The notes under the pieces were generated by a model. That model did not search any database and was not told the origin of the DNA. It saw nothing but the letters and a program-made list of their open reading frames with translations. From the NCBI GenBank assembly GCA_017650905.1, contig JAGCDZ010000101.1, positions 1-47,796 of the forward strand: a stretch of DNA of 47,796 nt. The letters are read 5' to 3'. Origin of the DNA: Prevotella sp. GTDB lineage: Bacteria; Bacteroidota; Bacteroidia; Bacteroidales; Bacteroidaceae. Within the stretch, counting starts at the first letter, position 1. Every line of letters begins with the position of its first letter. This document shows positions 2,696-13,086 of the stretch, piece by piece. The position numbers and the translations under genes are program-made.

Positions 2696-3550
2696 ATGAC
2701 AAAGAAACAAGCAATACAACTCTTTGAAGAAAAGAAAGTTCGCACGGTATGGGATGACGAGCAGGAGAAATGGTATTTCTCTATCGTAGATGTATGTTAT
2801 GTACTTACTGACAGCAAAGATGCTCTAACGGCCCGTAAGTACTGGAATAAGCTGAAACAACGTCTGAAAGAGGAAGGTAATGAAACGGTGACAAATTGTC
2901 ACCAGTTGAAAATGCGTGCAGCCGATGGCAAGATGCGACTGACGGATGTCGCTGATACAGAGCAGCTTTTCCGCTTGATTCAGTCTATCCCTTCTCCCAA
3001 GGCTGAGCCGTTCAAGCTATGGATGGCTCAGGTGGCCAGTCAGCGATTAGACCAGATGCAGGACCCAGAACTCAGCATCGATCAAGCCATTATCGATTAC
3101 AAGCATCTTGGTTATTCAGACGCATGGATTAACCAGCGCGTCAAGAGCATAGAGGTTCGTAAGGAACTCACAGACGAATGGAAGCGTACAGGTGTGAAAG
3201 AAGGGCTTGAATATGCTTCGTTGACAGATATCATTACTCGTGAATGGAGCGGATTCACCACCAAACAATACAAGCATCATAAGGGACTGAAGAAAGAAAA
3301 TCTGCGCGACAACATGACCAATCTCGAAATAGCACTTAATATCCTGGCCGAAGCCTCTGCTACTGAAATTTCCAAGCAGCGTGATCCCAAAGGCTATAAC
3401 GCCCAGACACAAGTTGCCAAAGAGGGTGGTAGCGTAGCCAAAGCGGCTCGCAAGCAGTTGGAGAGCAAATTGGGCCGCAGCGTCATCTCTAAATCAAAAG
3501 CCAGCGACTATCTTTTGCCTGAAAATGCTGAAAAAGAGGAATCTAAATGA
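2696..3550 (+). CDS. BRO-family (Bro-N) DNA-binding protein, copy 2
   Basis: This 284-residue paralogue of the gene at 869-1717 shares its opening (KKVRTVWDDEQEKWYFSIVD), the IPSPKAEPFKLWMAQVASQR motif and almost the whole C-terminal half (ELTDEWKRTGVKEGLEYASL; GGSVAKAARKQLE). Residues 42-95 differ: here KYWNKLKQRLKEEGNETVTN followed by a GKMRLTDVADTEQLFRLIQ segment, closer to the usual Bro-N pattern. A DNA-binding, antirepressor-like role is inferred from the family. It lies 27 bp behind the RhuM remnant and probably shares its promoter at 2248. The start ATG at 2696 aligns with that of copy 1. Confidence 0.8.
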   Translation: MTKKQAIQLFEEKKVRTVWDDEQEKWYFSIVDVCYVLTDSKDALTARKYWNKLKQRLKEEGNETVTNCHQLKMRAADGKMRLTDVADTEQLFRLIQSIPSPKAEPFKLWMAQVASQRLDQMQDPELSIDQAIIDYKHLGYSDAWINQRVKSIEVRKELTDEWKRTGVKEGLEYASLTDIITREWSGFTTKQYKHHKGLKKENLRDNMTNLEIALNILAEASATEISKQRDPKGYNAQTQVAKEGGSVAKAARKQLESKLGRSVISKSKASDYLLPENAEKEESK

Positions 3551-4118
3551 AATGAAGAATTAAGATGACTGCTTATACAATACTCAAGGAATATATCTGG
3601 CTGATGAATATTATTCATCATGCAGGAATTCGCACACCGGGACAGAGTCATGTGATTCTAATCGTTTCTAAGAAACGCTTGCCAAAGCAAGAATTCGGCC
3701 TATAATAGAAGGTAAAGAGAGGAAGAACGAGGAAGGTCATTTTTGGATTGAAAGCAAATTGGGGAGGATTGTAGAAGTAGTTAAGTTTTCAAATCGTAAC
3801 CTCATTTAGCCATTTCCTTCATCTTTGTGACGAAACTGTTGAAGCTCGTCAGCAGTTCTTCAAGTGAAGCGACAAGCCGATTACCTCGTAGGTACTGCGC
3901 TCAACTTAAGAAAACAAAAGTCTAAAGTCCGCCGAGCTTGCTCATCAGAAAGCAGGCAAGCATCTTTATGTGGCACTCCACAGAAAGGTGCGTATTAGAT
4001 TACACCCTTTTATGGCATAGGAAACAGAAATCTTTGCGGAATGATACCATATCAAGAGAAAAGACCACTCTTTTTCTTAATTTATGTTCACGAATTATTG
4101 TATCCCCAATTTTTTGAT
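3551..4118. other. Decayed sequence between BRO copy 2 and the defence-like operon
   Basis: No intact gene is seen. At 3672-3809 a plus-strand frame without a start reads IIEGKERKNEEGHFWIESKL and looks like a C-terminal fragment of something unidentified. On the minus strand, about 3905-3802, a frame ends LEELLTSFNSFVTKMKEMAK, also a C-terminal-looking scrap. The two overlap tail to tail at 3802-3809. A possible WYL-type N-terminus at 3565 is listed separately. The stretch is best read as recombination debris. Confidence 0.5.
3565..3705 (+). pseudogene. Possible N-terminal scrap of a WYL-type regulator
   Basis: The 46-codon frame begins MTAYTILKEYIWLMNIIHHAG. That resembles the opening helix of WYL-domain transcriptional regulators of Bacteroidales, which usually continue with a winged-helix motif. 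Here the frame goes on with unrelated residues and stops. Only about 20 residues support the match, so this is a weak call. Confidence 0.35.
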
Positions 4119-4126
4119 TATATTTG
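4098..4126 (+). promoter_or_regulatory. Promoter of the four-gene operon
   Basis: TTG at 4098-4100 and TATATTTG at 4119-4126, 18 bp apart, fit the Bacteroidetes promoter. The predicted transcript start near 4132 lies downstream of an in-frame ATG at 4041 and upstream of the ATG at 4170, which decides the start of the XRE gene. No other -7 box was noticed before the later genes, which overlap. Confidence 0.6.
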
Positions 4127-4169
4127 CGCACAGAACGCTCAATGTTGGGCAAGAATAACTAAAAGCGAT

Positions 4170-4397
4170 ATGGAGATACAACGCTATAACAGGCTAAAAA
4201 TAGTACTGGCCGAGAAAGAAAGAACAGGCACGTGGCTCTCAGAGCAGATGGGCCATAATGTCAGTATTGTTTCACGCTGGATGACTAACAAGGTACAGCC
4301 CTCCGTGGAACAACTCTACGAGATAGCACACCACCTCGACGTGGATGTGAAGGAATTATTAGTGTCATCAAAAAAACAAGTAAATTTTAAACGCTAA
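4170..4397 (+). CDS. Small XRE-family HTH regulator
   Basis: The 75-residue product is almost entirely a Cro/C1-type helix-turn-helix: WLSEQMGHNVSIVSRWMTN carries helices 2 and 3, followed by KVQPSVEQLYEIAHHLDVDV. Such single-domain regulators commonly sit first in toxin-antitoxin and defence operons and repress their own promoter. The reading frame is open back to 4041, but the promoter at 4098-4126 and the family's usual N-terminus favour ATG 4170. Its stop codon shares one base with the next gene's start (TAATG), which suggests translational coupling. Autoregulation is inferred; no operator dyad was confirmed. Confidence 0.8.
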   Translation: MEIQRYNRLKIVLAEKERTGTWLSEQMGHNVSIVSRWMTNKVQPSVEQLYEIAHHLDVDVKELLVSSKKQVNFKR

Positions 4398-7357
4398 TGA
4401 ACTATCCACTAATTACAGACTATATCGACTCGATAAGATTTGCAGAGTATAATTTTGCTACACTTACTAACCTACGTCCAATATTTGAAAAAGATGACAA
4501 TCCCTTATACATTATTGAGGGTAATTGTATAGTTTTTAAAATGGAAGATGTCGTTTTTAAAAAGAACTATTGGGTTAAGTGCTTTCTTTTAGAACAATTA
4601 GGTAGAAAAGAATGGTATGATGAAATTTGTCAAAGTGGTTTGTTCTTCTCTAAGGATTCTTTTTTTTTAGAAAACGAACTATTTGTTGATACGGATATGA
4701 CAAATAATGAGGAATTTCCAGTATTCATTTATCCATGTACAGAAAATGTTTGCTTTGCTGACTATATATATGCAAATTTAGATAATAAACATGCGCTTAT
4801 TCGTTTGTCCACCCAATTTGGCCAAATATTGAAATGGTCGCGAGATGCTAATTTCATATGGAACAAATTGGATATTTCAAAAATGTTTGTGAACACAAAG
4901 GAGAACCTTGAATTTGTAAATCTTGATGATATACTTTTAAAAAGCTCTGAAGACACTGATATTTATCAATTTGATGAAGTTTCAATTGTCATGTTACTCC
5001 TTTCTTTAAAAGCAATATCAATAATGCCTGATTTATTTGATTTAGAAAGGATAAAAAGTCATTTGCTTTTTGCAATTCAAGATAGTGAGCATATAGTGAA
5101 GAGCGAATTATTTCAAAAGTTAATACAGATTGATGACAAAGAAATCAATTCGTTAATTGGATATTTACTTCTTTGCTTGAATTCTGATTTTAATTTTCGA
5201 ATCGATTCAAGCATCTTTAGTCTGAAACCTATTTTTGAATCAGAAATCGATGAACTTTTGTACTACGCAAAGAATGGTGATGACAAAAAACAAGTGGAAT
5301 TAGCTAGAATCTATTATAAGCAAAAGTTGTATCCAGAGGCTTTTAAATGGTATTCTGCAGCAGCAAGCCTAGGAAATCCTGATGGCATAAATGGCGTTGG
5401 CTGTTGCTATAAGGGAGGATTATCTGTAGAAAAAAATGAAGAATATGCCGTTCAATTATTTACCAAAGCAGCGGATAAAGGGTCAGAAAGAGCTCAATAC
5501 AATCTTGCTATGGCATACTATACAGGGAAAGGAATTGAATCGGACTGGGAAAAGGCTTTTTCACTTTTCAAAAAATTAGCAGAAAATGGTGAACCACATT
5601 CCCAATACATGGTTGGTAAATACCTTATGTCTAATCATGGAGGTACAATTTCATGGCATATAGTAAGTAAACGCAACACAAAAGAAGCATTTAAATGGTT
5701 TGAAAAATCTGCTATCCAAGGAAATTCTAGTGCCCAACAGCAATTAGGACTGTTTTATGAATCTGGAACAGATCCCTGTATAAGAAACATTGAAAAGGCA
5801 TTTGATTGGTATCTAAAATCAGCAGATCAGGGTAATATTGAAGCTATATTCGCACTTGGAAGGCTATACACAAATGGCATAGATGAAAAAAAACCTGATA
5901 TGGCGAAAGCTTTCCATTATTTTCTAAAAGCTGCAGAATCTGGCCATCCAGAAGCACAATATAGAGTTGGCGTAGCGCTGTATTATGGTAAAGGAACTGA
6001 AATTGATAAAGAATCTGCAATGTCTTGGCTTAATAAATCTGCGAGTCAAAGAAATGATGCCGCTCATAATCTTTTAATCCAACTCAAATCAGAGCATACA
6101 GAAGTAGAAAATAACGATACAGCGGCAACACAAGGTGAAATGGCAAATGCAAAAATGGATTCATATGATGTTTTATATAGTGTCGATGGAAAGAAATTGT
6201 TGCATTATGGAATTGATGACGTAACAAATGATTTTAATTTTGGCACAATAAAACAGCAGTCGTTGAAAAAATACTCTGTTCCAGAAGGAGTTACAATTAT
6301 CTGTGACGATGCTTTTAGTGATTGTGAATCACTTGAGACTATAATCTTGCCATCTTCCATAAAGTTAATAGGTAGTGGTGCTTTTTATAATTGTGTAAAT
6401 CTGGAATCAATTGTTATACCAGAAGGTGTGAAATCTATAGAGTCCTATACTTTTAATGGATGCTCATCATTACAAGATCTTGTATTACCCCGCTCACTTG
6501 AAACAATCAACACCAGTGCTTTAACTGATGTTAAGGGTATAGAATCAAATTCACCTAATTTCATAGTAAAGGAAGAGTGCCTTTATAGCCAAGATTTAAA
6601 AACACTTATCCATTTTTTTAATAATGGAAGAACATTTTTTAATATCCCTAATGGTACAACTCGTATTGAGAGTTACGCATTTGAAAATTCTACCATAAGA
6701 AGTATATTAATTCCTAATTCTGTTTCCTCTATTGGTGATTGCGCCTTTGCTAGTTGTAAAAAACTCCAAGAGATAGAATTGCCATCGTCAATTACAGAAA
6801 TTGGGGAGGCTGCTTTTGATAATTGTGCAAGTTTATACAACATTATACTCCCAAGATATTTGAAGCGTATAGATGTTCAAACATTTGAGCATTGCAAGAG
6901 TCTTACACGTATTCAAATACCTGATTCAGTTGAAGAAATTGGAAATTATGCATTTGCACTAACAAGCTTGAAATCAATCTGCTTGCCTCAAAACTTGAAG
7001 AAATTAGGCGGAATGTGCTTTGCTTTAGCACCATTAGAAAGAATTATGTCAAATTCTGAGTCTATGTTAGTTGATAATATGACAGTTTACAGTGCAGATA
7101 GAAAAACATTGATACAATACTATGGACACGATCAAAGGCTTGTTATTCCAAATAGTGTTGTTAAGATTGGAGATTTTGCATTTGCTTGTGCCTATTCTAT
7201 TAATGAGCTTGTCATCCCTGATTCTGTTGAAGAAATCGGCAAATCTTTTTTAGAGGAAGTTTTGCCTGATAAAATAATAGTGCCAGCCAATTTGGTTGAA
7301 ATAGTTAAAGATAGAACAGAAAGCTATTATCATAATCATATTGTTGTAAGTGAGTGA
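4397..7357 (+). CDS. Degenerate kinase-like / Sel1-repeat / BspA-type LRR protein
   Basis: The 986-residue product appears to have three parts. Residues 30-240 follow the layout of a kinase-like domain known to me from Bacteroidales proteins: NPLYIIEGNCIVFKM, then WVKCFLLEQ with a possible ATP-binding lysine K61, and EVSIVMLLLSLKAI near 195. Where active relatives have an HGDLKPDN-like catalytic loop, this protein has WNKLDISK (155-162), with lysine 157 at the catalytic aspartate. Residues 295-560 hold about six Sel1/TPR-like repeats (AFKWYSAAASLGNPDG, AFKWFEKSAIQGNSSA). Residues 620-985 hold BspA-type leucine-rich repeats (ITEIGEAAFDNCASLYNIIL). No signal peptide or membrane segment is seen. 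It overlaps the next gene by 4 bp. A sensing or scaffold role is inferred from its repeats and context. Confidence 0.75.
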   Translation: MNYPLITDYIDSIRFAEYNFATLTNLRPIFEKDDNPLYIIEGNCIVFKMEDVVFKKNYWVKCFLLEQLGRKEWYDEICQSGLFFSKDSFFLENELFVDTDMTNNEEFPVFIYPCTENVCFADYIYANLDNKHALIRLSTQFGQILKWSRDANFIWNKLDISKMFVNTKENLEFVNLDDILLKSSEDTDIYQFDEVSIVMLLLSLKAISIMPDLFDLERIKSHLLFAIQDSEHIVKSELFQKLIQIDDKEINSLIGYLLLCLNSDFNFRIDSSIFSLKPIFESEIDELLYYAKNGDDKKQVELARIYYKQKLYPEAFKWYSAAASLGNPDGINGVGCCYKGGLSVEKNEEYAVQLFTKAADKGSERAQYNLAMAYYTGKGIESDWEKAFSLFKKLAENGEPHSQYMVGKYLMSNHGGTISWHIVSKRNTKEAFKWFEKSAIQGNSSAQQQLGLFYESGTDPCIRNIEKAFDWYLKSADQGNIEAIFALGRLYTNGIDEKKPDMAKAFHYFLKAAESGHPEAQYRVGVALYYGKGTEIDKESAMSWLNKSASQRNDAAHNLLIQLKSEHTEVENNDTAATQGEMANAKMDSYDVLYSVDGKKLLHYGIDDVTNDFNFGTIKQQSLKKYSVPEGVTIICDDAFSDCESLETIILPSSIKLIGSGAFYNCVNLESIVIPEGVKSIESYTFNGCSSLQDLVLPRSLETINTSALTDVKGIESNSPNFIVKEECLYSQDLKTLIHFFNNGRTFFNIPNGTTRIESYAFENSTIRSILIPNSVSSIGDCAFASCKKLQEIELPSSITEIGEAAFDNCASLYNIILPRYLKRIDVQTFEHCKSLTRIQIPDSVEEIGNYAFALTSLKSICLPQNLKKLGGMCFALAPLERIMSNSESMLVDNMTVYSADRKTLIQYYGHDQRLVIPNSVVKIGDFAFACAYSINELVIPDSVEEIGKSFLEEVLPDKIIVPANLVEIVKDRTESYYHNHIVVSE

Positions 7358-8046
7358 TGATATATATCGAATCAAAAAGAAAAAAAGTAGAGGGGCTAAT
7401 TAAAAAGTACCCTAATGCAATAATTGCTGATGTTACGAGCAAATCGGACACCGCATTGATAAAATTAAGTCCCTTTTATCCATGGGGAGATATTCCAGTT
7501 CCATATACTCCAAACATGGTGGCGTCTTGTGTTGAGGCAATCTGGCAAGGTCTGAAAGTATTTGAAAAATCGGATGTTGATGTTGATACATTTAAGAATG
7601 ATACTATGCGAGGTATAAAACGATCATCCAAGAAATACGGACAGATTCTTGGGCATCGTCGGGGCGTTTATGGCAATGTGCTATTCGATTATTTAGAAGC
7701 GAGAAAAAGAATATACATACGTTCATATAGATGGATGTTAGAAAATAAGGCATTATACATAATCGAAAGAATGAGAGTGGCTTTTAAGAATCAAGACATT
7801 GTTCTTCTTGATTATGAAACTAATTGTGATATTACCAATGTTACCAGACCTCTTTCACATGCTTACTTAGTTAAAGCCTATGTTGAGGGGATAGAACCAT
7901 TTGAAGATGTAAAAGAAAAGATAGTGCATCATCATTACTATACAGGAAAGAGGACCATAAGTTGGACAACAGAGGAAGAAGTGTTTAAAAAAGTACAACC
8001 ACAAGAACAAAAGGATACTCAACTATCTATAGAATTTGATTTTTAG
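7354..8046 (+). CDS. DUF6939/NADAR-like protein, candidate antitoxin
   Basis: This is a 230-residue cytoplasmic protein. Conserved-looking blocks are IADVTSK (24-30), KLSPFYPWGDIPVPYTP (37-53), CVEAIWQGLKVF (59-70), YGQILGHRRGV (95-105) and LLDYETNCD (151-159). I recognise it as DUF6939 (name from memory). The order of blocks resembles NADAR (YbiA-like) proteins: a surface loop with SxFxPW, then E-x3-Q-x2-K (E61, Q65, K68), then LG-x-R. Some NADAR proteins remove ADP-ribose from guanine bases and act as antitoxins of DarT enzymes. Here the gene lies directly before a DarT-like gene (stop and start codons abut at 8046/8047), and no DarG macrodomain gene is present. The antitoxin role is inferred. 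An alternative start is the second ATG at 7357. Confidence 0.65.
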   Translation: MMIYIESKRKKVEGLIKKYPNAIIADVTSKSDTALIKLSPFYPWGDIPVPYTPNMVASCVEAIWQGLKVFEKSDVDVDTFKNDTMRGIKRSSKKYGQILGHRRGVYGNVLFDYLEARKRIYIRSYRWMLENKALYIIERMRVAFKNQDIVLLDYETNCDITNVTRPLSHAYLVKAYVEGIEPFEDVKEKIVHHHYYTGKRTISWTTEEEVFKKVQPQEQKDTQLSIEFDF

Positions 8047-9474
8047 ATGAAAAGAAGAAAAGACTATTCCAAATTCAAGGAAATCCTTGAAAAGTATCAA
8101 ATAAAGAAGTTCTACCATTTTACTGATAGATCCAACATAGAGTCTATAATTAAAAATGGAGGATTATACTCTTGGGGTGATTGCCTAAAAAGAGGTATAT
8201 ATGTCGCACATCCTGGAGGATCAGAGTTGTCTCACGAACTTGACAGTCAACAAAATCTTGCAGAATACGCTCGTATAAGTATTTGCAAAAGACATCCCAT
8301 GATGTATTATGCCATGAATGAGGGACGAATTGTTAATCCTGTAATACTAGAAATAGACACTGATATATTGTTTTTAGACGGGAATGTCTTCTCTGATAAG
8401 AATGCAGTTAGGGCTGATGCAAATAAAGGAACAAGTTTTTCTTATTTTGAAAATATACATTTTCAGACTGCATTAAGAAATACACAGTTTGGTGTTAATG
8501 AAGATGAAAAGGATTATTATCAAGCAGAGATATTAGTTAAAAACTATATACCCCTCCATTATATCATAAACATCTCTAATTTTGTAGAGCAAGATACACA
8601 TAGTACCATACCCCATGCAAAAGTTCCATACTCAGCATCAATTACGGAAGACAATCCTGCAGCTATATTTTTCATATTAAACCAGTCATATCCAACAGAA
8701 AATAAGATAGTTTATAAAGGGAAAGAAGAAACTGTATCTCAGGCTATCTCTGATATTGTTAACCAACAACTTCATACTTTAATTACTCAAAACACCGAAG
8801 ACAACAATCTATATAATAGATATCAGATTTCTGTTATTGGCTATGGTGATTCTGAATATAGTTGTTTTAACGGAAACTTGCGATATAAAAATATTGTGGA
8901 ACTTGAAGAGTTAAAGGGAAATCCACAGTCAATTAAAAAAACGATCAAAGAAAAAAAGACAAGGCAAGGAATAATCCAAATAGAAAGGGATGAACCTGTA
9001 TGGATTACACCACAAAGTGGTGGAAACGCATATTTACATAAAGCATTAAACCGTGTGAAGAATCTTGCAGAAAAGTGGATATCTCTTCACCCCACTTCAT
9101 TCCCTCCTTTAATCATACACATATCTTGTTTTGGATATAATGGAATAGAAGATTATGATATAATTCAATTAGCCAATGAAATTAAATCTCTATACACGCA
9201 GGATGGTAATATTATTTTTGCGAATCTCATTTTTTCGCAAAAAACAGAGGAGGAACCTGTATTGTTTCCTGAGTCTGTTAAGGAGATGGGAAGAAGTGTG
9301 TTTGGGGAGATGTACTATCTGATGTCTAGTCAGTTGCCTTTATTTTATAATCAACAGATAAGAGATTATAGGGATGAAATAGAGATGAGATCATTTCACT
9401 CAGCGTTAGCATTTAATATCAAAATAAGTGACATCCCTGTGCTGTTACAGACTCTTGTCCAGAAAGCGAAATAA
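8047..9474 (+). CDS. DarT-like ADP-ribosyltransferase fused to a degenerate vWA domain
   Basis: Residues 20-178 fit DarT (PF14487): FYHFTDRSNIESIIKNGGL (22-40), KRHPMMYY (81-88), FSDKNAVRADA (115-125) and DYYQAEILVKNYIPLHYI (156-173), with E161 as the likely catalytic glutamate. DarT enzymes attach ADP-ribose to bases in DNA. Residues 205-470 follow a von Willebrand A fold: FFILNQSYP (208-216), ISVIGYGD (261-268), SGGNAYLHKAL (324-334), PPLIIHISCFGYNG (353-366) and a TQDGNIIFANLIFS strand. At the metal-site positions of active vWA proteins I read N212 for Asp, P216 for Ser, N327 for Thr and C361 for Asp, so metal binding is probably lost. No signal peptide is seen. It is the last gene of the operon. 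The fusion and its pairing with a NADAR-like gene suggest a toxin; activity is untested. Confidence 0.75.
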   Translation: MKRRKDYSKFKEILEKYQIKKFYHFTDRSNIESIIKNGGLYSWGDCLKRGIYVAHPGGSELSHELDSQQNLAEYARISICKRHPMMYYAMNEGRIVNPVILEIDTDILFLDGNVFSDKNAVRADANKGTSFSYFENIHFQTALRNTQFGVNEDEKDYYQAEILVKNYIPLHYIINISNFVEQDTHSTIPHAKVPYSASITEDNPAAIFFILNQSYPTENKIVYKGKEETVSQAISDIVNQQLHTLITQNTEDNNLYNRYQISVIGYGDSEYSCFNGNLRYKNIVELEELKGNPQSIKKTIKEKKTRQGIIQIERDEPVWITPQSGGNAYLHKALNRVKNLAEKWISLHPTSFPPLIIHISCFGYNGIEDYDIIQLANEIKSLYTQDGNIIFANLIFSQKTEEEPVLFPESVKEMGRSVFGEMYYLMSSQLPLFYNQQIRDYRDEIEMRSFHSALAFNIKISDIPVLLQTLVQKAK

Positions 9475-9586: not shown

Positions 9587-10459
9587 ATGGTGAAAAGAAG
9601 AGAAATAAGAAATAGTACAGCAGAGTTTCTGATCTTCCAGGCAGAAGGAAAGGAACAGGGTATAGAGGTATACTATAAAGACAAGACTGTGTGGTGTACC
9701 CAAAAAGCGATGGGTCTGTTGTTTGACTGTTCAACGGACAATGTAGGACTTCACCTGAAGAACATATTTGCAAGTGGCGAACTGGTTAAGGATTCAGTTA
9801 CCGAGAAAATCTCGGCAACTGCCTCTGATGGGAAGAACTACATGACACAGTTCTACAATCTTGATGCCATCATCAGCGTAGGCTATCGCGTCAATTCTAT
9901 CCGTGCTACGCAGTTCCGTCAGTGGGCCACGAGTGTATTGCGTGAGTATGCCATTCGAGGCTATGTGCTTGACAGAAAGCGTATGGAGAACGGAACATTC
10001 TTAGACGAAGACTATTTCGAGCACCTGTTAGCGGAGATTCGGGAGATTCGTCTCTCTGAGCGTCGTTTCTATCAAAAACTGACAGATATCTATGCCACAA
10101 GCATGGACTATAACAAAGATGCGCCTACCACGCGATTGTTCTTCAAACGGATTCAGAACAAAATGCATTATGCCGTTCATGGGCGTACGGCAGCAGAACT
10201 GATTATGGATAGAGCTGATGCTGACAAGGAGCACATGGGGCTTACTACTTGGGAGAATGCGCCAGACGGAAAGATTGTAAAGACGGACGTGTCAATTGCC
10301 AAGAACTATCTGAAGCAAATGGAACTGGAAGATATGGGGCGTATTGTTACGGCTGTATTGGAGTTTGCAGAAAGCCGTGCTAAACGGCATATCCCGATGA
10401 CGATGGAGGACTGGGCTAAGCTGGCAGCGATTGAGCCCGTCTGGCTCACCATCAAATAG
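9587..10459 (+). CDS. RhuM-family protein, C-terminus shortened
   Basis: The 290-residue protein has the RhuM layout: a winged-helix-like N-terminus (YYKDKTVWCTQKAMGLLFDC, then STDNVGLHLKNIFASGEL), the central YNLDAIISVGYRVNSIRATQ and FRQWATSVLREYAIRGYVLD, and a helical C-terminal part (RLFFKRIQNKMHYAVHGRTA). Family members usually continue about 40-50 residues past MTMEDWAK; here the frame ends LAAIEPVWLTIK. The stop lies 20 bp from the stop codon of the first core gene. The end has probably been replaced at the island junction. The second RhuM gene of the island, at 2296, is a wreck. Function of the family is uncertain. Confidence 0.75.
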   Translation: MVKRREIRNSTAEFLIFQAEGKEQGIEVYYKDKTVWCTQKAMGLLFDCSTDNVGLHLKNIFASGELVKDSVTEKISATASDGKNYMTQFYNLDAIISVGYRVNSIRATQFRQWATSVLREYAIRGYVLDRKRMENGTFLDEDYFEHLLAEIREIRLSERRFYQKLTDIYATSMDYNKDAPTTRLFFKRIQNKMHYAVHGRTAAELIMDRADADKEHMGLTTWENAPDGKIVKTDVSIAKNYLKQMELEDMGRIVTAVLEFAESRAKRHIPMTMEDWAKLAAIEPVWLTIK

Positions 10460-10478
10460 GGCATAGTGGGTGTTGATT

Positions 10479-11429
10479 CTAAACTACATTCTGAGGCTTT
10501 CCATTGATGAATGCCCGTACGCTGCTGATGGCTACATCTATCAGACGGGTGCGGGCTTCATTGGATGCCCAGGCGATGTGGGGTGTGATGAAGGCATGGT
10601 CACATGTCAGCAGAGGATTGGCCTTTGGTGGTTCCTCTGTCAGCACATCGGCGCAAAAGGCTCTCAGTCGATTGCTGTTTAGGGCCTCTGTCACATCCTC
10701 ATCGTTGATTAATGGGCCGCGACCTGTGTTGATAAGGATGGCTGAGGGCTTCATCAGTCCAAGTGCCTGACGGTTGATCAGGTGCTTGGTTTCCTGTGTC
10801 AGCGGACAATGCAGACTCAATACATCGCTTTCTGCCAATAATTCTCGTAGCGTTCTCTTCCCAATGTATTGTGGTAGTTCCTCTGCCGACTTGCTGGTAT
10901 AGGCGATGACGTTCATACCGAAAGCATTGGCGATAGCTGCTACACGCTGACCGATATTTCCAAGTCCTACGATGCCGAAGGTCTTGCCTGCGAGTTCTGT
11001 CAACGGTGTGTCCCAATAGCAGAAGTCAGGGTTGGCTGTCCATCTGCCTGCACGGTTGAGAATGGCGTAATGCTCGGTGCGATTGGTAACGGTGAGCAGA
11101 TGGGCGAACACCATCTGGGCAACGCTCTCCGTGCTATAGGCTGGCACGTTGGTGACGATGATGCCGTGTTCATGGGCGGCTTCCACGTCGACCACGTTAT
11201 AACCCGTTGCCAGCACACCGATGTACTTCAGCTTGGGCAGCTGTTCGATTTCCTGGCGTTTGATCAGCACTTTGTTCGTCAGGACAATCTCTGCGTCTTT
11301 CGCCCGTGCGATGGTTTCTTCGGGCTTCGTGCGGTCATAAACGGTCAGCTCACCAAGTTGCTTCAACGGTTTCCATGCGAGGCTATCTGGATCTGCCGTA
11401 TAGCCGTCAAGAATTACAATTTTTCTCAT
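10479..11429 (-). CDS. D-2-hydroxyacid dehydrogenase (hydroxypyruvate/glycerate type)
   Basis: This 316-residue NAD-dependent reductase interconverts 2-hydroxyacids and 2-oxoacids. It has the Rossmann fingerprint GIVGLGNIGQRVAAIANAFG near residues 152-171, the catalytic arginine in NTGRGPLI, and the histidine in FITPHIAWAS. Length and motifs match glycerate dehydrogenase/hydroxypyruvate reductase relatives, but the substrate cannot be fixed by eye. It is the last gene of a leftward set nudix-mscS-dehydrogenase, 15 bp behind mscS. Its stop codon faces the accessory island, so the island inserted just beyond its 3' end. Confidence 0.88.
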   Translation of the reverse strand: MRKIVILDGYTADPDSLAWKPLKQLGELTVYDRTKPEETIARAKDAEIVLTNKVLIKRQEIEQLPKLKYIGVLATGYNVVDVEAAHEHGIIVTNVPAYSTESVAQMVFAHLLTVTNRTEHYAILNRAGRWTANPDFCYWDTPLTELAGKTFGIVGLGNIGQRVAAIANAFGMNVIAYTSKSAEELPQYIGKRTLRELLAESDVLSLHCPLTQETKHLINRQALGLMKPSAILINTGRGPLINDEDVTEALNSNRLRAFCADVLTEEPPKANPLLTCDHAFITPHIAWASNEARTRLIDVAISSVRAFINGKPQNVV

Positions 11430-11444
11430 AGGTGTTTTACTGAT

Positions 11445-12554
11445 TTACTGCGACGGGAACTGCTGATAGATGGTGAGGCCGTAATCAGCGCTGGCAGCAA
11501 AGATGTATTCCATAATATCAGCTGTGTCGTGCTCGAAGTCGGCCCAGGCCTGGGCATAGAGCCAGAAGGTGAACTCCAGGCAGCAGCCGCCCTGCGAGGC
11601 CTCAGCCTGACGCACCAAAGGATTCTTCTCGGCAATGACCTTCGGATTGTCGCGCAGCCATTGTTCCACATGCTGGCGGAACTTGGTGATGTTGGCCACT
11701 CCGTCGTCGTCGAGATGGATGGAGCGGAAGTCGAAATAGATTTTCCGTGACTGCTTGCGGCCTTCGTTCTGCTCCATACCGAGCCAGTTCTGGAAGGAGC
11801 CGTCGACCAGCGTCTGAGGTGTGACGGTGACGATGGTGTTGTCGAAGTTGCGCACTTTCACGGTGGTCAGCGAGATGTCTTCCACCCGGCCATTGACACC
11901 GGCTGAACTGACTGTTATCCAGTCGCCGATGTGAACCATATCATTGTTCGTCAGTCGGATACCTGCCACCAGTCCTTTGATGGTGTCCTGGAAAGCCAGC
12001 ATCAGGATGGCTGACGCGGCTCCCAGACCGGCAAAGAGCGTTGTGGGGTTTTTGTCAACCACGATGGCGATGACCACAATGATGGCAATGAAGATGATGA
12101 TGATTTTCAGCACGCCACAGATGGAGTAGAGATATTGTTGGCGAGCCGAACGGGGTCCGCTCCCCAGCAGCTTGAACGAGTCGATGAATACGATGACGGC
12201 ACGTGTGGACATCACTGTGATGTAGATGGCTGTCAGACGGGTCAGCACTTCACGGACCGTGGGGAAATCGAAGAACGTCCAGGGCAGCAACAGCCAGATG
12301 ACGATGGCTGGCACGATGCTGCAGGCTGTCAACAACACGCGCTCGCTGAAGAGCACATCATCCCATTTTGCCTCTGTCTTTGCCGTCAGTTTCAACGTTG
12401 CGGGCACCACTATCTTTCTGCAAATCCAGCCTGCGAGTGCTGCCAACAGGATGGCCAATACCACCAGAACAATATGCGTGACGACGTTGACTGCATCACC
12501 CGTAATGCCGCAAGCTGTAATCAGCTGCTCTACCCAAATCTGTATCCTTTCCAT
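11445..12554 (-). CDS. MscS-family mechanosensitive channel (YbdG-like)
   Basis: The 369-residue membrane protein has about five hydrophobic segments (for example IVLVVLAILLAALAGWI at 28-44 and IIIIFIAIIVVIAIVV near 153-168). The pore-lining helix follows as PTTLFAGLGAASAILMLAFQ. Next is the soluble MscS beta domain (VHIGDWITVSSAGVNGRVED; TIVTVTPQTLVDGSFQNW). Such channels open under membrane tension and release solutes during osmotic down-shock. Two N-terminal helices before the conserved MscS core fit the YbdG-type subgroup. It is separated by 22 bp from the nudix gene and 15 bp from the dehydrogenase, so the three are likely co-transcribed. Confidence 0.88.
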   Translation of the reverse strand: MERIQIWVEQLITACGITGDAVNVVTHIVLVVLAILLAALAGWICRKIVVPATLKLTAKTEAKWDDVLFSERVLLTACSIVPAIVIWLLLPWTFFDFPTVREVLTRLTAIYITVMSTRAVIVFIDSFKLLGSGPRSARQQYLYSICGVLKIIIIFIAIIVVIAIVVDKNPTTLFAGLGAASAILMLAFQDTIKGLVAGIRLTNNDMVHIGDWITVSSAGVNGRVEDISLTTVKVRNFDNTIVTVTPQTLVDGSFQNWLGMEQNEGRKQSRKIYFDFRSIHLDDDGVANITKFRQHVEQWLRDNPKVIAEKNPLVRQAEASQGGCCLEFTFWLYAQAWADFEHDTADIMEYIFAASADYGLTIYQQFPSQ

Positions 12555-12576
12555 AAGCTCAATAAAACTTGGTTAA

Positions 12577-13086
12577 TTATAAAAAGAACTGCTCGAACTC
12601 ATGCTCGAAGTTGGGTGTCAGTACACCCTGACCCATTGCCTCGCGAATCTCTTGTATTGACCAGAAACGGCCATCATCGAGTTCATCCTTTGAGGGCAGG
12701 ATGGGACCTTCGTAGTTGGTGCGGTGCACATACACCAGTTCACGTTCGCGCTTGCTTTCAAATACATACTTGCCTATGAACTCGGGTGTGAAATCCGTGA
12801 TGCCCAGTTCCTCGCGCACCTCACGATGCAGCGCCTCTTCGGGTGTCTCACCATAGTCGATATGACCGCCTACGGCCGTATCCCACTTGCCTGGCTGGAT
12901 GTCCTTCCACTCGGGCCGCTTCTGAAGATAGACGTCACCCTGCGCATTGAACACATGTAGATGGACCACAGCGTGCAGCAGCCGTGAACCGTTGTGGCAC
13001 TCACCGCGCGTCGCTTGTCCTATGATCGTTCCCTCTTCATCCACGATTGGGAACACTTCATGCTGATTATCTTTCATGTTTAGCAA
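12577..13086 (-). CDS. Nudix hydrolase
   Basis: The 169-residue enzyme carries a complete Nudix box (GHIDYGETPEEALHREVREE followed by LGI, about residues 74-96), the metal site for hydrolysis of nucleoside diphosphates linked to another group. The N-terminal FPIVDEEGTIIGQATRGECH and the YLQKRPEWKDIQPGKWD region resemble the isopentenyl-diphosphate-isomerase-like or YfcD-like branch, so the substrate is not certain. The promoter at 13100-13107 lies so close that the fourth codon, ATG at 13077, is an alternative start. It is the first gene of the operon with mscS and the dehydrogenase. Confidence 0.85.
   Translation of the reverse strand: MLNMKDNQHEVFPIVDEEGTIIGQATRGECHNGSRLLHAVVHLHVFNAQGDVYLQKRPEWKDIQPGKWDTAVGGHIDYGETPEEALHREVREELGITDFTPEFIGKYVFESKRERELVYVHRTNYEGPILPSKDELDDGRFWSIQEIREAMGQGVLTPNFEHEFEQFFL

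What the first reader, a model, noticed from the sequence alone, without database searches (positions are those of the whole stretch)
4098..9474. Compact four-gene operon: XRE regulator, kinase-like/Sel1/LRR protein, NADAR-like protein, DarT-vWA fusion
Seen: one promoter and four genes whose ends overlap by 1 bp, 4 bp and 0 bp, in DNA far richer in AT than its surroundings and flanked by mobile-element debris. Known: DarT enzymes ADP-ribosylate DNA bases and are toxins and phage-defence effectors; they usually pair with a DarG macrodomain, and some with NADAR proteins. Inferred: here a DUF6939/NADAR-like protein replaces DarG, and a large repeat protein with a dead-looking kinase domain may sense or hold the complex. 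I know of no described system with this set.
Basis: partly seen in the sequence, partly recalled or inferred. Interest (0 to 1): 0.92.

Follow-up and report, generated by a model that had tools for sequence, protein, structure and literature searches.

The report
DarT toxin operon with dead kinase
A Prevotella-like bacterium carries a compact operon that joins a DNA-modifying toxin, its likely antidote and a large repeat-rich sensor-like protein; it looks like a branch of a defence switch that has lost its phosphorylation machinery but kept its weapon.

Summary
The last gene is a DarT1-type DNA ADP-ribosyltransferase fused to a TerY-type vWA domain. DUF6939 is a diverged relative of the NADAR antitoxins of DarT1. 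The 986-aa protein is a dead protein kinase with Sel1 and LRR repeats. The set recurs: of 80 DUF6939 loci from named genomes, 73 have a DarT gene nearby and 65 a PP2C phosphatase; 52 of these 65 also hold a kinase of the TerY-P antiphage type. So the common form is a TerY-P-like triad whose vWA protein carries DarT. The window belongs to one five-locus clade without the phosphatase, the kinase motifs, the activation segment and the vWA metal site, yet its frames are intact and look constrained. Tandem kinases of the common form have unlike repeat tails, and two operons of the window's clade that are otherwise 99% identical carry different LRR tails. Best reading: a sensor-scaffold with an exchangeable LRR tail gates a DarT/NADAR-like pair, now without phosphorylation. 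The upstream HTH gene is not a conserved part. Function, sensing and any action on phage are inferred; no structure could be predicted.

The parts
4098..4126 (+). Bacteroidetes-like promoter (TTG ... TATATTTG)
   Evidence: Pattern found; consensus recalled from memory; not proved to be used
4170..4397 (+). Cro/C1-type HTH protein, 75 aa; co-oriented but probably not a core part
   Evidence: Pfam HTH_26 2.7e-7; its profile rings in 1 of 86 loci, the window; GC 43% against 29-37% for the rest
4397..7357 (+). 986-aa pseudokinase-Sel1-LRR protein (proposed sensor/scaffold)
4397..5221 (+). Degenerate TerY-P-type kinase domain (residues 1-275)
   Evidence: Aligned with intact relatives: HGDLKPDN stands as WNKLDISK, DYDG as NLDD, activation segment deleted
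5222..6166 (+). Sel1 repeats (residues 276-590)
   Evidence: Pfam Sel1 1.6e-50
6167..7354 (+). BspA-type LRR tail (residues 591-986), proposed ligand-binding part
   Evidence: Pfam LRR_5 3e-69; the matching part differs between L049 and L051
7357..8046 (+). DUF6939 protein, NADAR-like, proposed DarT antitoxin (ADP-ribosyl-guanine hydrolase)
   Evidence: Pfam DUF6939 1.9e-69; hhalign to DarT1-type NADARs E 6e-7; E60, K67, K88, D152 invariant in 29 sequences
8047..8601 (+). DarT domain of the DarT-vWA protein (residues 1-185)
   Evidence: Pfam DarT 9.4e-30; profile best PDB match E. coli C7 DarT1 1.3e-9; catalytic Glu position E161
8617..9471 (+). TerY-type vWA domain (residues 191-475), MIDAS lost
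   Evidence: PADLOC TerY 4.7e-36; DxSxS stands as NQSYP and DG as CF
9587..10459 (+). RhuM-family gene, where most relatives have PP2C; flanking DNA, not part of the system
   Evidence: Pfam Virulence_RhuM 2.1e-93
2696..3550 (+). Bro-N gene, upstream flank, not part of the system
   Evidence: Pfam Bro-N 2e-13

Best explanation
The three genes 4397-9474 are a phosphorylation-free derivative of a DarT-armed, TerY-P-like system. Shown by sequence: a DarT1-type ART fused to a TerY vWA domain; a NADAR-like DUF6939; a kinase-derived Sel1/LRR protein; absence of PP2C, intact kinase motifs and MIDAS in one clade whose frames stay open and look constrained. Inferred: at rest, DUF6939 removes ADP-ribose from guanine in DNA and/or restrains DarT. 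The pseudokinase holds the DarT-vWA protein through the old kinase-TerY contact. The exchangeable LRR tail binds an invader's product, and that binding frees DarT or sidelines DUF6939. DarT then ADP-ribosylates DNA and stops replication, so the infected cell does not yield phage. In the common form the same switch would run through kinase and PP2C.
For: Domains. The set recurs: 73 of 80 DUF6939 loci have DarT within 1.5 kb on the same strand and 65 of 80 have PP2C. Kinases match PADLOC STK_OB in 17 of 18; PP2C in 15 of 15. 65 of 65 PP2C loci keep vWA DxSxS; the 5 PP2C-less loci with room downstream (window, L045, L047, L049, L051) lack it. PP2C of this family was not found in the held genomes of these five and was found in 5 of 5 control genomes. 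The five form one clade, 100/100, inside the PP2C group on the DarT tree. dN/dS per gene 0.06-0.13 for the window against L045 and 0.05-0.12 for L047 against L049. NADAR kinship: hhalign E 6e-7 against 0.19 and 0.56 for two controls. Different LRR tails in otherwise 99% identical operons L049/L051, and kinase identity above tail identity in 39 of 39 within-locus pairs kept. Precedents seen in passages: inactive kinases in other vWA conflict systems (PMC7159879); KKP, where a phage protein inhibits the phosphatase (PMC11341870).
Against: No function, interaction or toxicity was tested, and no fold could be predicted. dS is near saturation, so dN/dS is rough; for the kinase-like part of window against L045 it could not be computed, and for L047 against L049 that part gives 0.20. 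In L049 against L051, where divergence is tiny or the tail is foreign, it reaches 0.42 (986-aa protein) and 0.19 (DarT-vWA). The losses share one origin, so their agreement is not five independent events. In L045 and L047 the Asp of HGD is kept, so kinase death is surest for the window. Only the first ~100 residues of DUF6939 align well with NADAR, and Pfam NADAR-DarT1 scores under its cut-off (15.2 of 27 bits). The window's genome is 71.6% complete and the completeness of the other four is not told, so missing PP2C genes are weak evidence. Repeats change faster than enzyme domains in general, so unlike tails do not prove recognition. The LRR swap rests on one pair of metagenome-assembled genomes and could be a misassembly. 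DarT-vWA has no relative found in viral contigs and DUF6939 none in the phage collection.
Confidence: 0.5

Rival explanations
1. A plain toxin-antitoxin module: DarT-vWA is the toxin, DUF6939 the enzyme antitoxin, and the pseudokinase-Sel1-LRR protein only a holder that keeps the pair together. It stabilises the island or gives general stress control, with no invader-specific sensor.
For: DarT1 with NADAR is a proved toxin-antitoxin pair (PMC11543638, passages). The genes abut. DUF6939 follows DarT in other gene sets too, such as L144 and L081, L089, L125.
Against: Repeat tails diverge more than kinase domains in 39 of 39 pairs kept and differ wholly between L049 and L051, which a mere holder does not need. 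The common form is built on the TerY-P-like kinase/phosphatase set.
Confidence: 0.23
2. Phosphorylation still works in trans: a kinase and PP2C elsewhere in the genome act on this operon's proteins.
For: The window's genome is only 71.6% complete. Two weak kinase hits exist elsewhere, E 0.001 and 0.0075.
Against: No PP2C of this family found in the window's genome or in four genomes of the clade, against 5 of 5 controls. The vWA MIDAS and the C-terminal GTPTN/GTLSS tail (a candidate phosphosite, my inference) are also gone in 5 of 5.
Confidence: 0.08
3. A decaying remnant: the operon lost PP2C and kinase function and is on its way out.
For: Several conserved motifs are lost; the island also holds Bro-N and RhuM genes.
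Against: Three intact frames of 986, 229 and 475 codons; the same state in five loci of one clade; per-gene dN/dS 0.05-0.13 in the two pairs that are far enough apart; DarT catalytic Glu motif kept.
Confidence: 0.07
4. The DarT target is not DNA guanine but another base, RNA or a protein, and DUF6939 reverses that mark; the system is otherwise as in the best explanation.
For: DUF6939 is clearly diverged from NADAR; NADARs also act on RNA guanosine (PMC11833690, passages).
Against: The DarT domain is nearest DarT1, a guanine-specific enzyme (PMC11543638, passages).
Confidence: 0.12

Closest known systems
TerY-P triad (TerY vWA, PP2C, STK fused to an OB-fold or zinc ribbon), antiphage; described in passages of PMC11090510 and PMC10889362; Gao et al. 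2020 not seen itself
   Same: Window vWA matches PADLOC TerY; kinases and PP2C of the close relatives match PADLOC STK_OB and PP2C
   Different: DarT is fused to TerY, a DUF6939 gene is added, the kinases carry Sel1, LRR or WG repeats; the window itself lacks PP2C and an intact kinase
DarTG1 (DarT1 with NADAR antitoxin), PMC11543638 (passages and section 12)
   Same: DarT1-type ART next to a NADAR-like protein
   Different: Order reversed (DUF6939 first), DarT fused to vWA, a third sensor-like gene, DUF6939 in place of the DarT1-type NADAR
KKP kinase-kinase-phosphatase module, PMC11341870 (abstract and passages)
   Same: A kinase/phosphatase balance used as an antiphage toxin-antitoxin switch, as inferred here for the common form
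   Different: There the kinases are the toxin; no DarT-vWA or NADAR-like part was seen in the passages
vWA-MoxR ternary systems, PMC7159879 (passages)
   Same: vWA partners and kinases with disrupted catalytic residues in conflict systems
   Different: No MoxR ATPase in this operon; the word DarT has 0 occurrences in that text

Membership tests
TerY-P triad | TerY-like vWA protein | tested here: met
   PADLOC TerY 4.7e-36, residues 194-463, although MIDAS is lost
TerY-P triad | PP2C phosphatase gene | tested here: not met
   Next gene is RhuM; no PP2C of this family found in the genome held, genome 71.6% complete
TerY-P triad | Active Ser/Thr kinase | tested here: not met
   No PADLOC hit for P0001; catalytic Asp, Lys, Asn and activation segment lost; by sequence only
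DarTG1 (DarT1-NADAR) | DarT1-type ADP-ribosyltransferase | tested here: met
   Pfam DarT 9.4e-30; best PDB match C7 DarT1 by profile; E161 at the catalytic position. By sequence only
DarTG1 (DarT1-NADAR) | NADAR antitoxin | tested here: inconclusive
   Homology by hhalign E 6e-7, E60 and K67 aligned with the NADAR pair; Pfam NADAR-DarT1 below cut-off; fold not predicted
DarTG1 (DarT1-NADAR) | Toxicity relieved by the partner | not testable with these tools
   Needs expression
DarTG2 (DarT2-DarG macrodomain) | Macrodomain antitoxin next to DarT | tested here: not met
   No macrodomain among the Pfam hits of the four proteins
Pfam DUF6939 | Match over curated cut-off | tested here: met
   233.1 bits against 27
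Phage defence system | Protection from phage | not testable with these tools
   Needs plating assays

The most novel reading that the evidence does not exclude
Bacteroidales carry an intracellular receptor-kinase immune system: sets of kinases with related kinase domains and exchangeable repeat tails feed one DNA-modifying effector, and the window's clade has turned the receptor kinase into a pseudokinase scaffold that works without phosphorylation, much as plant immune pseudokinases do.
Probability: 0.38. Interest if true: 0.9.

Novelty: new variant of a known kind. Interest (0 to 1): 0.73.

Why it matters
How DarT toxins are released during infection is described as unknown for DarTG (passage of PMC11481870). 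A DarT fused to a TerY domain and tied to sensor-like kinases with unlike tails gives a concrete, testable route from sensing to release. The clade in which kinase motifs, phosphatase and metal site are all missing offers a natural experiment on what phosphorylation contributes. DUF6939, found in 0 papers of the library searched, gains a likely function as a NADAR-like antitoxin that is combined with more than one gene set.

Tried and rejected
The PDB sequence search with DUF6939 alone gave only chance hits. A single NADAR sequence against the DUF6939 profile gave E 0.029, not convincing; eight NADARs gave 6e-7. DUF6939 D152 was considered as the counterpart of NADAR D171, but the extended alignment pairs another Asp, so it is left open. 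R52 of DarT1 could not be mapped with confidence. No relative of DarT-vWA was found in viral contigs and none of DUF6939 in the phage collection. Second copies of the two LRR tails were looked for in three genomes, the window's included, and not found. The idea that the HTH gene is a core part was dropped. A DarG macrodomain was rejected. The vWA tree keeps the five together, but its midpoint root puts them outside, so nesting rests on the DarT tree alone (where the bootstrap had not settled).
Full report
Anatomy. The window is one whole contig of a 2.9 Mb, 71.6% complete genome. A same-genus genome (G206) holds a contig of the same length as a named record titled uncultured Prevotella sp., so the genus is probably Prevotella in the wide sense. 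Four co-directional ORFs lie at 4170-4397, 4397-7357, 7357-8046 (or GTG 7354) and 8047-9474. Pfam gives HTH_26/HTH_3; Sel1 and LRR_5; DUF6939 (233 bits) with a sub-threshold NADAR-DarT1 match (E 0.015); and DarT (104 bits, residues 23-184). PADLOC adds TerY over residues 194-463 of the last protein (4.7e-36) and finds nothing in the 986-aa protein. GC is 29-37% over 4397-9474, 43% in the HTH gene and 48.6% downstream. Two Bro-N genes and a RhuM gene flank the operon. The HTH profile rings in the window alone of 86 loci.

Recurrence. A search with the DarT-vWA protein in 301 genomes of the family found 21 with a match; 14 of the 301, own genome included, span residues 1-440 or more. A DUF6939 profile scan of the named genomes found 296 relatives, of which only the 80 nearest to the window were kept; what follows is about those 80. 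Of them, 73 have a DarT gene within 1.5 kb on the same strand and 65 have a PP2C; of the 7 without DarT, 3 lie on contigs of about 6 kb or less. Across 395 genomes drawn from the phylum, 4, own genome included, have a DUF6939 match at E 1e-10 or better.

What the common form is. In the PP2C loci the usual order is kinase(s), DUF6939, DarT-vWA, PP2C; in L122 DUF6939 comes last. Of the 65 PP2C loci, 52 hold a kinase ORF and 51 of these have at least one intact kinase; the exception, L071, is cut by the contig start. Of 18 kinase-like proteins aligned in A6 (picked by me from the loci), 17 match PADLOC STK_OB, the one without a match being the window's, and 14 match Pfam Pkinase. The PP2C proteins match PADLOC PP2C in 15 of 15. 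TerY, PP2C and STK_OB are the three parts of TerY-P. I saw passages that describe TerY-P as a vWA, PP2C and kinase triad and as antiphage (PMC11090510; PMC10889362). In the one kinase inspected, L029:4252-7482, the STK_OB match covers positions 3-266 of 562, the kinase half, and WG repeats precede it. Of the 18 proteins of A6, LRR_5 is found in 15 and Sel1 in 8.

The window's clade. Among 71 DarT-vWA loci (the window and 70 others), 65 have PP2C, and 65 of 65 keep the vWA motif DxSxS and the DG of the second motif (62 by regular expression; 3 by eye). Five have none although 8.5 kb or more is held downstream (for the window the whole contig): the window, L045, L047, L049 and L051. In the sixth, L046, the contig ends 503 bp downstream; its kinase and vWA motifs are intact. 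In all five PP2C-less loci the MIDAS reads NQSYP (the regular expression missed three of them) and DG stands as CF, CL, EF or EY. The C-terminal tail, GTPTN in 60 and GTLSS in 5 of the 65, is gone in the five. In the kinase domain all five lose the glycine-rich loop SSGNFAVVF, the Lys and Asn of HGDLKPDN and about 20 residues of activation segment. The window and L049/L051 also lose the HGD Asp, L045 and L047 keep it, and only the window loses the first Asp of DYDG. PP2C of this family was not found in the held genomes of the five and was found in 5 of 5 control genomes.

One origin, and still constrained. On the DarT-domain tree the five are one clade (100/100), inside the PP2C group next to L105 (99/98); the bootstrap had not quite settled. 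On the vWA tree they are one side of a branch, but the midpoint root puts them outside. Counting (Nei-Gojobori, own script; dS is near saturation), window against L045 gives dN/dS 0.13 for the 986-aa protein, 0.06 for DUF6939 and 0.13 for DarT-vWA; L047 against L049 gives 0.12, 0.08 and 0.05. By part, the kinase-like part of L047 against L049 gives 0.20, and for window against L045 dS could not be computed there. L049 against L051 gives 0.42 for the 986-aa protein, where the tail differs, and 0.19 for DarT-vWA at tiny divergence. I read this as a kept state, not decay. Because the five share one origin, the joint loss of PP2C, kinase motifs and MIDAS is one evolutionary episode.

The antitoxin. 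DUF6939 (A3, 29 sequences) against eight DarT1-type NADARs (A5, which match PDB 8bat at 2e-98) gives hhalign E 6.2e-7, probability 92. Two control comparisons gave 0.19 and 0.56. E60 and K67 of DUF6939, seven apart and invariant in A3, fall on the NADAR Glu/Lys pair. In the paper that pair is E88/K95 of C7 NADAR; [quoted passage not shown] The second half of the protein does not align with confidence. DUF6939 also sits after DarT in Zorya-like operons (L081, L089, L125) and on a Parabacteroides plasmid (L144), and beside an RHS gene on a Bartonella plasmid (annotation only). That is how an antidote that travels with ART-like weapons would behave; this last step is inference.

The toxin. The DarT-vWA profile's best PDB match is E. 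coli C7 DarT1 (1.3e-9), ahead of two DarT entries (8e-5 and 0.003) that I take, from recall, to be DarT2. The position of the catalytic Glu is E161, invariant in 25 of 25 sequences of A4. The matched crystal construct carries Ala there, as the paper's E152A does.

The sensor. Of the pairs of kinases within one locus, 39 were kept after dropping those with a kinase part under 200 or a tail under 80 residues. In 39 of 39 the kinase parts are more alike than the tails (medians 66% and 26%), and 19 of 41 loci with at least 9 kb held upstream of DarT-vWA have two or more kinase ORFs on that strand. Repeats evolve fast in general, so this alone is weak. L049 and L051 are 99.0% identical over 6968-8972 and 98.8% over 9984-12586 (L049 coordinates), but show no blastn match over the LRR tail between, while the gene upstream is 80.6% identical. 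By DNA search neither tail has a second copy in either genome. I read this as exchange of recognition tails. It rests on one pair of metagenome-assembled genomes.

Mechanism. Shown: parts, order, losses, constraint. Inferred: the pseudokinase keeps the old contact with the vWA domain; the LRR tail senses; DUF6939 restrains or reverses DarT; release stops DNA replication. The contact with the vWA domain is the weakest step. For DarTG the trigger is stated to be unknown (PMC11481870, passages), and in KKP a phage protein inhibits the phosphatase (PMC11341870).

Literature. I saw no description of DarT fused to TerY or of DUF6939 with DarT in the searches. These cover open-licence PubMed Central papers only, and most papers were seen as listings. 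DUF6939 occurs in 0 papers of that library. So the claim is only that I did not find it.

Noticed in passing
L081:8356-12844; L089:8623-12842; L125:8769-12953; L042:7520-11341; L041:5650-9813; L144:3739-7861: DarT and DUF6939 followed by MotA-like and ZorB-like genes: a Zorya-like operon with a DarT/NADAR-like pair. Basis: PADLOC ZorB 8e-13 in L042; weak MotA_ExbB and MotB_plug hits in L081; L089 and L125 by profiles made from L041 and L042; L041 and L144 by gene order and size only.
   Followed up: partly
L126:9980-10549; L127:9974-10555; L128:9917-10477; L129:9917-10477: DUF6939 genes without a DarT hit in the stretch held, in viral contigs of 95-201 kb: possible anti-DarT counter-defence. 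That the contigs are phage was not checked.
   Followed up: partly
L143:3995-4549; L142:4995-5585: DUF6939 near an RHS gene on a Bartonella plasmid, and on a Kitasatospora plasmid that also has an Imm7 gene: possible immunity protein role (annotation).
   Followed up: no
L049:8972-9984 and L051:8912-9984: LRR tails unlike each other inside operons that are about 99% identical on both sides.
   Followed up: yes
L029:7619-8896; L047:5184-6698 and others: SLFN_AlbA_2 plus HATPase_c_4 proteins near the system; a profile match is held at 20 of the 80 named loci, some on the other strand or as fragments.
   Followed up: no
L029:11878-13140; L141:2448-3700: DUF1810 genes near these systems, and on a Prevotella plasmid with NUDIX and ADP-ribosylglycohydrolase genes not far from DUF6939.
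   Followed up: no
869-1717 and 2696-3550: Two similar Bro-N proteins in opposite orientation close to the operon.
   Followed up: no
96-770: DUF6994 gene at the contig start.
   Followed up: no
L091: A contig labelled Lachnospiraceae carries the Bacteroidales-type system, next to L110 on the vWA tree: contamination or transfer.
   Followed up: no
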